From NCBI GenBank assembly GCA_901538445.1, contig LR594584.1, positions 4,799,360 to 4,863,359 on the forward strand: a stretch of 64,000 nt of DNA. The letters run 5' to 3'. The notes under the pieces are model-generated. The model saw only the letters and a list, made by a program, of their open reading frames with translations, searched no databases and had not been told where the DNA came from. The DNA is from Gemmataceae bacterium. Its GTDB lineage: Bacteria; Planctomycetota; Planctomycetia; Gemmatales; Gemmataceae. The position numbers and the translations under genes were made by a program. Positions within the stretch are counted from its first letter, which is position 1. Every line of letters starts with the position of its first letter. Positions 13,666-47,334 of this stretch are shown one piece after another.

Positions 13666-13732
13666 GGCGAGCCGTGCCAGTCATGGCACGGGTTGTGGTG
13701 AATCACCCGCGTCATGACTGACGCGGCTCGCC
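13666..13732. repeat. REPIN-like pair of GGCGAGC half-sites between convergent genes
   Basis: Two 28-nt half-sites face each other (13666-13693 and 13705-13732) across an 11-base loop. Each half has fixed ends (GGCGAGC and GGGT) and a 7-bp stem closed by the loop GTCA. The stems differ in sequence (CGTGCCA against CGCGTCA), yet each is fully paired. It may double as a terminator for both flanking genes. Confidence 0.9.
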
Positions 13733-38838: not shown

Positions 38839-39069
38839 GGCGAGCCGTGTGTGTCAGCACACGGGTGAGCGCGAACAGGGGTACGCAGAGATTGAATCTG
38901 GGTCAGGGTCACCCCCTCGCTGGCGCTCAGGGTTCGCCAAGACGTTGCACAGCTTCTTGGCGAACCCCGAGCGCCAGCGAGGGGGTGGCTTCACAACCCA
39001 AACCACCCACTGTGAAACACTGCGTCGCCCTGTGAGCGCGAACCCGTGTGTTGACACACACGGCTCGCC
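38839..39069. repeat. REPIN-like GGCGAGC pair interrupted by another palindrome
   Basis: Half-sites at 38839-38866 and 39042-39069 carry the GGCGAGC end, a 7-bp stem (CGTGTGT with GCACACG or ACACACG) and the GTCA loop of the family seen at 13666, 43978 and 60001. The two halves are 175 bases apart rather than the usual 5-12. The gap holds a separate palindrome at 38911-38986. Confidence 0.88.
38911..38986. repeat. Palindrome nested inside a REPIN-like element
   Basis: A 32-bp inverted repeat with one mismatch (38911-38942 with 38955-38986) around a 12-base loop. Its outer ends read ACCCCCTCGCTGG. It lies between the two halves of the GGCGAGC pair. Confidence 0.9.
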
Positions 39070-39130
39070 GGGCAGATATGTCCCGGGATGCGGATGATCG
39101 CGGACCGGGGGTGGTCCGCATCCGTTCTGG

Positions 39131-39319
39131 AGCCGGCCGCTGTGAGGCCGGATCGCGTGGATCAGTTGCTTTTGGTGGGGCAGGCATTCGTGCCTACCTC
39201 CAACCGCGTCTGGAGGCAGGCAAGAATGCCTGCCCCACCAGTTCGAAACGAATCCATGCGATCCGGTATGAGGCCGGGCCTGTGGGACTCGCAGACGCCC
39301 GGCCTCACAGCGGCCGGCT
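39131..39319. repeat. Host palindrome split by a mobile element
   Basis: The left arm 39131-39145 and the bases 39272-39279 together form the exact complement of 39297-39319, a 23-bp inverted repeat. The arm is interrupted by 39146-39271. Removing that segment restores a perfect palindrome. Confidence 0.9.
39146..39268. mobile_element. Short palindromic mobile element, copy 1 (123 bp)
   Basis: The element starts GGCCGGATCGCGTGG and ends ATGCGATCCGGTA, so its termini are inverted repeats of about 15 bp with one G-T pair. Its core is the GGGGCAGGCATTC hairpin shared with 11154-11220 and 47144-47274. It is flanked by TGA at 39143-39145 and again at 39269-39271. It encodes no protein, so any transposase acts in trans. 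Confidence 0.82.
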
Positions 39320-39499
39320 ACAGTGAGCACTCAACAAGACGTCACCCGCCCCGACCACCGCAACCGCGTTCGTCTCACGCTCGCCCGGGTTTTGAGCAAC
39401 CCGGGTGCCCCAGGCGGCCGGCGCAAGCCGGCTTGCTTTCGGGGGGCCGCGCAGGTTATAAGCCCTCGGACTCCACCGACCACGGACGGCCGAGGGGCA

Positions 39500-43977: not shown

Positions 43978-44038
43978 GGCGAGCCGCCCCGGTTACGGGG
44001 CGGGTGGTTCACCCGCGTCATGACTGACGCGGCTCGCC
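43978..44038. repeat. REPIN-like pair of GGCGAGC half-sites between convergent genes
   Basis: Half-sites 43978-44005 and 44011-44038. The left stem is CGCCCCG/CGGGGCG with loop GTTA; the right half is identical over 28 bases to the right half at 13705-13732. The two halves of one copy thus have different stems, each fully paired. It sits between the convergent isomerase and EF-G genes. Confidence 0.9.
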
Positions 44039-47125: not shown

Positions 47126-47334
47126 GGCGAGCGGGGGACGTGATCCCGAATCGCGTGGATCAGTTGTCTCCGGTGGGGCGGGCATTCTTGCCTGCCTCCA
47201 ACCGCCTGGGGAGGCAGGCAAGAATGCCCGCCCCACCGAGACAGAAGACAGAAACGAATCCACGAGATTCGGTATGAGTCCCCCGGTCGAACCGCGATCC
47301 TCGTTCACCGGGGGACTCACGTCCCCCGCTCGCC
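47126..47334. repeat. GGCGAGCGGGGGACG palindrome split by a mobile element
   Basis: The left arm 47126-47143 plus 47278-47286 pairs with the 27-bp right arm 47308-47334. It is the same palindrome as the intact copy at 29133-29208. Here it is interrupted between GACGTGA and GTCCCCC by 47144-47277. Confidence 0.92.
47144..47274. mobile_element. Short palindromic mobile element, copy 2 (131 bp)
   Basis: Starts TCCCGAATCGCGTGG and ends ACGAGATTCGGTA, flanked by TGA at 47141-47143 and 47275-47277. Compared with copy 1 at 39146, the terminal stem reads CCGAAT/ATTCGG instead of CCGGAT/ATCCGG, a compensated change. The core hairpin GGGGCGGGCATTC pairs with GAATGCCCGCCCC. Non-coding. Confidence 0.85.

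What the first reader, a model, noticed from the sequence alone, without database searches (positions are those of the whole stretch)
38839..39069. One palindrome nested within the loop of another
The two halves of the GGCGAGC element are separated by 175 bases instead of 5-12, and the gap contains an independent 32-bp inverted repeat (38911-38986). Together with the nested elements at 39.1 and 47.1 kb, this makes three nested cases. It suggests that existing palindromes are preferred targets, perhaps because cruciform or hairpin DNA attracts the insertion machinery.
Basis: partly seen in the sequence, partly recalled or inferred. Interest (0 to 1): 0.55.

Follow-up and report, generated by a model that had tools for sequence, protein, structure and literature searches.

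The report
Tiny transposon targeting REP-palindrome spacers
In this apparently planctomycete genome a 157-bp transposase-less jumping element has repeatedly landed in the exact middle of one particular repeated palindrome, and an unrelated small element often hits the hairpin loops of a sister palindrome, so the nesting reflects specific target choice rather than a pull of palindromes in general.

Summary
The nesting is real and explained. The outer structure is a REPIN-like doublet: two inverted units, each GGCGAGC + 7-bp stem + GT(C/G)A loop + GGT. The "inner palindrome" is the middle of a 157-bp MITE (38876-39032) with CAGGG..ACGCAG ends, flanked by a perfect 10-bp target-site duplication (TGAGCGCGAA) made from the doublet's spacer. 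Some 30 copies exist. Of 27 assignable target sites, 8 are spacers of CGTGTGT-stem doublets (at least 58 such elements), against about 0.002 expected if 10% of the genome is open. Nested copies do not cluster by sequence and matching empty doublets exist, so the insertions were separate. Ends and duplication length resemble ISAs1-family elements of this genome and genus; no autonomous partner with identical ends was found. The other two "nested" cases are a different MITE with 3-bp TNA duplications: in a GGGGGAC-unit tetraloop (47.1 kb) and in a palindrome arm (39.1 kb); 11 of 28 examined copies adjoin GGGGGAC half-units. Roughly 1000 other palindromes (extrapolated) hold about one copy of the 157-bp MITE, so generic cruciform attraction is not supported. 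REP targeting by insertion sequences (PMC1525189) and REP dimers inside palindromes (PMC3733652) are known; this is a new variant.

The parts
38839..38866 (+). left REP-like unit: GGCGAGC + CGTGTGT stem + GTCA loop + GCACACG + GGT (one T-G pair)
   Evidence: sequence; unit model 41 of 49 fully paired in an 864-kb sample when chosen without a stem criterion
38866..38875 (.). left copy of 10-bp target-site duplication TGAGCGCGAA (its first T is the last base of the left unit)
38876..39032 (+). 157-bp MITE with ISAs1-type ends (CAGGGGTACGCAG...CTGCGTCGCCCTG)
   Evidence: 26 near-full copies genome-wide (L001-L026); consensus; ends and TSD
39033..39042 (.). right copy of the target-site duplication TGAGCGCGAA (its last A is the first base of the right unit)
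39042..39069 (-). right REP-like unit (inverted): GGCGAGC + CGTGTGT + GTCA + ACACACG + GGT
39146..39268 (+). second MITE family (TACCGRATC-type ends, GGTGGGGCAGGC hairpin inside), TSD TGA at 39143-39145 and 39269-39271, inserted in an arm of another palindrome (39127-39323)
47126..47334 (.). GGGGGAC-stem doublet whose left GTGA tetraloop holds a TNA MITE
47144..47274 (+). TNA MITE, TSD TGA at 47141-47143 and 47275-47277

Best explanation
A non-autonomous 157-bp transposable element (MITE) inserted into the pre-existing spacer of a REPIN-like doublet. Shown: the doublet; the MITE and its ends; the 10-bp duplication centred on the doublet's dyad; recurrence in the same kind of spacer at 8 loci; empty relatives of the target, several with the same spacers. 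Inferred: an ISAs1-family DDE transposase supplied in trans made the insertions, cutting 10 bp apart. Inferred: that transposase prefers the CGTGTGT-type doublet centre (CACGGG|T-N8-A|CCCGTG), by symmetric sequence, spacing, or an extruded hairpin of that sequence. A second, unrelated MITE (3-bp TNA duplication) often inserts in the tetraloop of a different REP subclass, which explains the nested case at 47.1 kb.
For: 26 near-full copies share their ends apart from a few truncated ones. TSDs of 9-11 bp with at most one mismatch in 18 of 24 copies tabulated, plus 3 gap-split copies with 9-10 matching bases. 6 of 25 rebuilt sites have a strong dyad (score 12 or more) exactly at the TSD centre, against 0.045% of 20,000 random positions of the sample, genes included; L014 and L028, assigned by eye, make 8 of 27. 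At least 58 CGTGTGT elements (100 of 117 arms were listed); 29 doublets with exact inner core are empty and include four of the filled spacers. Nested copies are not clustered by MITE sequence: mean distance 7.2 against 8.5 for random subsets of 23 copies, P 0.25 (replacing, which had L026 wrongly oriented). In the genus 7 of 30 fetched ISAs1 loci show CAGGG (one TAGGG) ends with 10-bp TSDs, an eighth weaker ends, 22 none. The own-genome ISAs1 ends share 19 and 20 of 27 bases with the MITE right end (15 and 17 with the left end), and its two copies have 10-bp TSDs swapped between them. Related MITEs in G005 have 9-10-bp TSDs (4 of 9 loci resolved).
Against: No match to the MITE's exact right end outside G000 in 19 genus genomes, and all 14 in G000 lie at MITE copies. 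Both own-genome ISAs1 copies have the reading frame split. 19 of 27 target sites are not in these doublets, so specificity is partial. 6 of 24 tabulated copies have no clean TSD. L028 has different duplications on its two sides across an assembly gap. End similarity of 19 or more of 27 is reached by 7, and 20 or more by 3, of 1501 CAGGG-starting 27-mers of the sample; some of these may be MITE or IS copies.
Confidence: 0.85

Rival explanations
1. Palindromic or cruciform DNA in general attracts the insertion machinery.
For: Two unrelated MITE families both hit hairpin centres or loops; one more 157-bp MITE copy (L021) lies off-centre in another palindrome of dyad score 27.
Against: About 1070 other strong palindromes (extrapolated from 118 in an 864-kb sample) hold about 1 copy, against 8 in 58 CGTGTGT elements (Fisher 2.6e-10, extrapolated). 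Each MITE prefers a different REP subclass.
Confidence: 0.08
2. Structure plus sequence: the transposase recognises the extruded hairpin or cruciform form of specific REP subclasses, not the duplex.
For: Insertion exactly at the dyad centre. At 14 of the 19 non-doublet sites, read on both strands, the duplication has G at its second base (hence C at its ninth) in 82%; the filled spacers fit this at one end only, so something beyond the local 10-mer may draw the element there.
Against: No direct evidence of extrusion. The symmetric arms CACGGG..CCCGTG also give a dimeric transposase a duplex motif. Short-spacer doublets with other stems exist but are too few to separate stem sequence from geometry.
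Confidence: 0.25
3. Composite spread: one doublet acquired the MITE and the composite then multiplied.
For: Some filled loci share spacers (L002, L006 and the left side of L028; L023 and the right side of L028).
Against: Nested MITEs are not a cluster; the nearest relatives of L023 and L011 are non-nested copies, and those of L001, L002, L006, L012 and L014 include non-nested ones. At least five different spacers are filled, and four of them also occur in empty doublets.
Confidence: 0.08
4. Survivorship: insertions land anywhere, but only those in dispensable palindromes survive.
For: Doublets are probably dispensable (inference).
Against: 6 of 8 nested copies are at one exact position in the doublet, not spread over arms and flanks. 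Random placement predicts 0.001-0.004 for 20-5% available genome.
Confidence: 0.02

Closest known systems
REP-targeting insertion sequences (ISPsy8, ISPa11, ISPpu9/10, ISRm22, ISRm19; IS1397, ISKpn1, IS621), PMC1525189
   Same: Recurrent insertion at one position of a repeated palindrome; for ISPsy8 and ISRm22 at the symmetry axis (Results, read).
   Different: Those are autonomous ISs with 100% of copies in REPs (type 1); here a MITE with 8 of 27. The paper names families IS3, IS110, IS4, IS256 and IS5; the word ISAs1 does not occur in it.
REP dimers lying inside palindromes (A. variabilis GTAG-15, T. roseum GTAG-23, H. neapolitanus CGTC-1), PMC3733652
   Same: Palindrome nested in palindrome, and in T. 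roseum hundreds of target palindromes without the inner element (section 7, read).
   Different: There the REP dimer is the inner element and the palindrome the target; here the REP-like doublet is the target and a MITE with a 10-bp duplication is inside.
REPINs (PMC3116915)
   Same: Inverted REP doublet with spacer, hairpin-forming, with compensatory changes (passages).
   Different: The 4 Y1 transposase genes found here are not flanked by GGCGAGC hairpins within about 1.5 kb; the tag is GGCGAGC rather than GTAG or CGTC (PMC3733652).
ISAs1-family insertion sequences and MITEs derived from them
   Same: CAGGG..ACGCA-type ends and 10-bp TSD in genus ISAs1 elements.
   Different: No transposase in the 157 bp; no autonomous element with identical ends found.
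IS231A insertion at Tn4430 ends (recalled, no call)
   Same: Insertion preference for a symmetric target (recalled).
   Different: IS4 family; a different element and host (recalled).

Membership tests
MITE | short, no transposase gene, terminal inverted repeats, multiple dispersed copies | tested here: met
   157 bp, CAGGG..ACGCAG at both ends (imperfect repeats), some 30 copies
MITE | target-site duplication | tested here: met
   18 of 24 copies tabulated with 9-11 bp, at most 1 mismatch; 6 without
ISAs1-derived MITE | ends and TSD length resemble an ISAs1 element | tested here: met
   10-bp TSD and CAGGG/TAGGG ends in 7 of 30 genus ISAs1 loci; own ISAs1 end identity 19-20 of 27 to the right end, 15-17 to the left
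ISAs1-derived MITE | autonomous partner with the same full ends | tested here: not met
   no match to the exact end outside G000 in 19 genomes; all 14 in G000 are MITE copies
ISAs1-derived MITE | mobilised by an ISAs1 transposase | not testable with these tools
   needs an assay
REPIN | inverted REP doublet with spacer | tested here: met
   92 forward and 92 reverse matches of the doublet pattern, control 0 and 0
REPIN | each unit folds on its own with a covarying stem | tested here: met
   41 of 49 units fully paired when chosen without a stem criterion; many different stems
REPIN | linked RAYT gene | tested here: not met
   4 Y1_Tnp genes; GGCGAGC words near two of them (L184, L186) lack the hairpin, by eye
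REP-targeting mobile element | recurrent insertion at one fixed position of a REP | tested here: met
   6 of 8 nested copies at the same base on both sides; L028 at the same base across a gap with unlike duplications; L014 matches on one side only
REP-targeting mobile element (type 1 of PMC1525189) | 100% of copies in REPs | tested here: not met
   8 of 27

The most novel reading that the evidence does not exclude
Two unrelated transposition systems in one genome read the same REP superfamily as landing pads, each recognising a different extruded structure: the cruciform centre of the CGTGTGT doublet, and the GTSA tetraloop of single GGGGGAC hairpins. REP diversification would then be partly shaped by MITE predation.
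Probability: 0.25. Interest if true: 0.7.

Novelty: new variant of a known kind. Interest (0 to 1): 0.45.

Why it matters
It extends REP-targeted transposition to MITEs with ISAs1-type ends and, by inference, to planctomycetes. Nesting can be dissected base by base here because empty and filled targets coexist in one genome. It offers a natural test of whether transposases read palindromes as sequence or as extruded hairpins. Narrow target specificity of this kind could be useful for genome tools.

Tried and rejected
Apparent insertions inside the MITE hairpin (matches 1-83 / 74-155) turned out to be runs of N: assembly gaps at the hairpin, not nested elements. A cluster of nested copies (composite spread) was tested and not found. 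In one search the orientation of 7 of 24 copies was unsettled, L026 was still wrong; one search has all 23 used copies oriented and gives P 0.25 (0.35 without L026). An RAYT linked to the GGCGAGC repeat was sought and not found. An orthologous empty site was sought upstream of the neighbouring gene in the two nearest of 11 relatives (83% and 85% protein identity); neither carries this doublet or MITE there, although one holds GGCGAGC doublets of its own. A one-mismatch search for the MITE end gave 57+55 matches against 44+52 for the reversed control, so it was not used for counting. An autonomous element with identical ends was not found.

Copies left out of the target-site count of the 157-bp MITE: L018 (IS at its end), L019 and L027 (contig ends), L020 and L025 (disrupted), L048 (right side in a gap), L029 (truncated); L030 is half of L056. 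L014 and L028 were assigned by eye. A 10-bp duplication was assumed when rebuilding all 25 sites, also for L005, L011, L017, L024 and L026, where it is not clean. The random control is over the whole sample; an intergenic control would give a higher background. For the second MITE only the 30 fetched loci were examined, less 2 opposite-strand duplicates, giving 28; other rows have no locus. The script found equal TNA duplications in 19 of these 28; L190 and L192 adjoin two inverted 5' half-units rather than one split hairpin. Whole-genome numbers of other palindromes and of GGGGGAC units are extrapolated from 864 kb; that sample overestimates CGTGTGT arms (22, scaling to 200, while the whole-genome count is 117), so extrapolations may be off about twofold. 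The 8/0 against 0/11 test is illustrative only.

Papers: PMC1525189 abstract, Results, part 1 of 2 of the Discussion, and passages; PMC3733652 section 7 and passages; PMC3116915 passages; all others only as search listings. That no ISAs1-type or MITE case of REP targeting was seen in print rests only on those six searches of an open-access library.

Full report
WHAT IS THERE. Two GGCGAGC arms (38839-38866, 39042-39069) lie 175 bases apart, with an independent hairpin between them. The gap contains the direct repeat TGAGCGCGAA (38866-38875, 39033-39042) around a 157-bp unit, 38876-39032, that starts CAGGGGTACGCAG and ends CTGCGTCGCCCTG. Remove the unit and one repeat and the doublet closes with an 8-base spacer between GGGT and ACCC, as in 21 of 29 empty relatives.

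THE INNER ELEMENT. The 155-bp core gives 101 alignments in its own genome (7.86 Mb, 4 contigs): 26 near-full copies (136 bp or more aligned) and many opposite-strand, partial or hairpin-only matches. Copies share their ends. A 9-11-bp duplication with at most one mismatch flanks 18 of 24 tabulated copies, and 3 gap-split copies have 9-10 matching bases. It is a MITE. One copy lacks the hairpin (L034) and still has a 9-bp duplication.

ITS LIKELY ENGINE. ISAs1-family transposases (Pfam PF13808) occur in 9 of 12 genus genomes and 1 of 7 same-order genomes searched. Seven of 30 fetched loci show CAGGG (one TAGGG) ends continuing ACGCAC or GCGCAC, with a 10-bp duplication; an eighth (L071) has weaker ends; 22 gave none. 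The two own-genome ISAs1 copies are 1250 bp with CAGGG ends, and their 10-bp duplications are swapped between the copies, as after recombination between them. One copy lies at the end of a MITE copy. Their ends share 19 and 20 of 27 bases with the right end of the MITE, 15 and 17 with its left end. Their reading frame is split, and no element with the exact MITE end was found outside MITE copies in 19 genus genomes, so the engine is inferred.

THE OUTER ELEMENT. GGCGAGC units follow one model: GGCGAGC, 7-bp stem, GT(C/G)A loop, stem, GGT. Choosing units in an 864-kb sample by the fixed bases alone, 41 of 49 have all seven stem pairs, 7 have six and 1 has four. Stems of quite different sequence occur: CGTGTGT, GGGGGAC, CGTGCCG, CGCCCCG, CGCGTCA here, and other mixes in G009 and G006. 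The whole-genome count is 118+122 against 0+1 for the reversed control; G009 has 66, G006 29, G005 13, and the other 15 genus genomes 0-4. The doublet pattern has 92 forward and 92 reverse matches, control 0, and some doublets have different stems on their two arms, so each arm can fold on its own. This is REPIN architecture. No RAYT link was found.

TARGET CHOICE. I rebuilt 25 empty sites by joining flanks. Six have a strong dyad exactly at the centre of the duplicated 10 bp; 0.045% of 20,000 random sample positions do. Two more copies (L014 with a deleted left end, L028 across an assembly gap) are also in CGTGTGT doublets, giving 8 of 27. At least 58 such elements are listed, so random placement predicts about 0.002 if 10% of the genome is available. 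Precision to the base argues against survivorship. Four filled spacers have empty counterparts with the same sequence (GAAGCTCA, GGGCGTGA, TGAGGTTC, TTGAGCACCACA); the window's own spacer, GAGCGCGA, is not among the 29 empties. The nested copies do not cluster by sequence. So these were separate insertions. Of the other 19 sites, one (L021) is off-centre in another palindrome and the rest are near background. At 14 of these 19 sites, read on both strands, the duplication has G at its second base in 82%; the filled spacers fit this at one end only, so the doublet itself may be attractive.

THE OTHER TWO NESTED CASES. Both are another MITE, with TACCGRATC-type ends, a 3-bp TNA duplication and the GGTGGGGCAGGC hairpin inside. 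At 47.1 kb it sits in the GTGA tetraloop of a GGGGGAC unit; at 39.1 kb it sits in an arm of a different palindrome. Of 28 examined copies, 11 adjoin GGGGGAC half-units; two of these were recognised by the right flank only (L205, L211), one by the left flank in the script (L200), and two (L190, L192) have two inverted 5' halves. The expected number is 0.28 at 10% available genome. No CGTGTGT unit was seen in the flanks that could be read.

INTERPRETATION. Preference for pre-existing palindromes is real but specific: two MITE families, two REP subclasses, two positions. About 1070 other strong palindromes (extrapolated) take about one copy of the 157-bp MITE. Hence generic cruciform attraction is unlikely; sequence or sequence-plus-hairpin recognition by the transposase is likely. 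Short-spacer doublets with other stems exist but are too few to tell stem sequence from spacing.

KNOWN CONTEXT. Insertion sequences that target REPs at a fixed point, for ISPsy8 and ISRm22 at the symmetry axis, are described in PMC1525189 (abstract, Results and part of the Discussion read), in families IS3, IS110, IS4, IS256 and IS5. PMC3733652 (section 7 read) reports REP dimers inside palindromes in three species, with hundreds of target palindromes without the insert in one. Here the inserted element is a MITE, the end type is ISAs1, the specificity is partial, and the target is the spacer of a REP-like doublet. I therefore rate it a new variant of a known kind. That the host is a planctomycete is inferred from the nearest relatives of a neighbouring gene.

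Noticed in passing
L077, L085: The two own-genome ISAs1 copies carry each other's 10-bp duplications (GTTCCCGACC / GCGTTGCCCT): recombination between IS copies on two contigs; one copy lies at the end of a MITE.
   Followed up: partly
L190 and L192, about 1440-1700: TNA MITE flanked by two inverted 5' half-units (GGCGAGCGGGGGACGTGA...TCACGTCCCCCGCTCGCC type) instead of the two halves of one hairpin; may be deletion of the spacer side or recombination.
   Followed up: no
38944-38953 and other MITE copies: The loop of the MITE hairpin occurs in both orientations (GTTG.. in 7 of 23 copies, the window copy among them; GC.. in 16): loop inversion.
   Followed up: partly
L028/L227, L042, L048, L051, L056: Assembly N gaps sit inside or beside the MITE hairpin; L028 has different 10-bp duplications on its two sides across the gap.
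   Followed up: partly
L183, L184: Two of four Y1 (RAYT-like) transposase genes are flanked by other palindrome families (CACCCCTGGCTAC; CCCGGGGCGTTGCCCCGGG), candidates for RAYT-linked REPs of this genome.
   Followed up: no
L229: 1600-1920: A relative (MAG, Planctomycetaceae bacterium DS2.012) has GGCGAGC doublets with other stems upstream of the same ABC transporter gene.
   Followed up: no
13666-13732 and 43978-44038: Doublets whose two arms have different stems (CGTGCCA/CGCGTCA; CGCCCCG/CGCGTCA), so they are not one long palindrome.
   Followed up: partly
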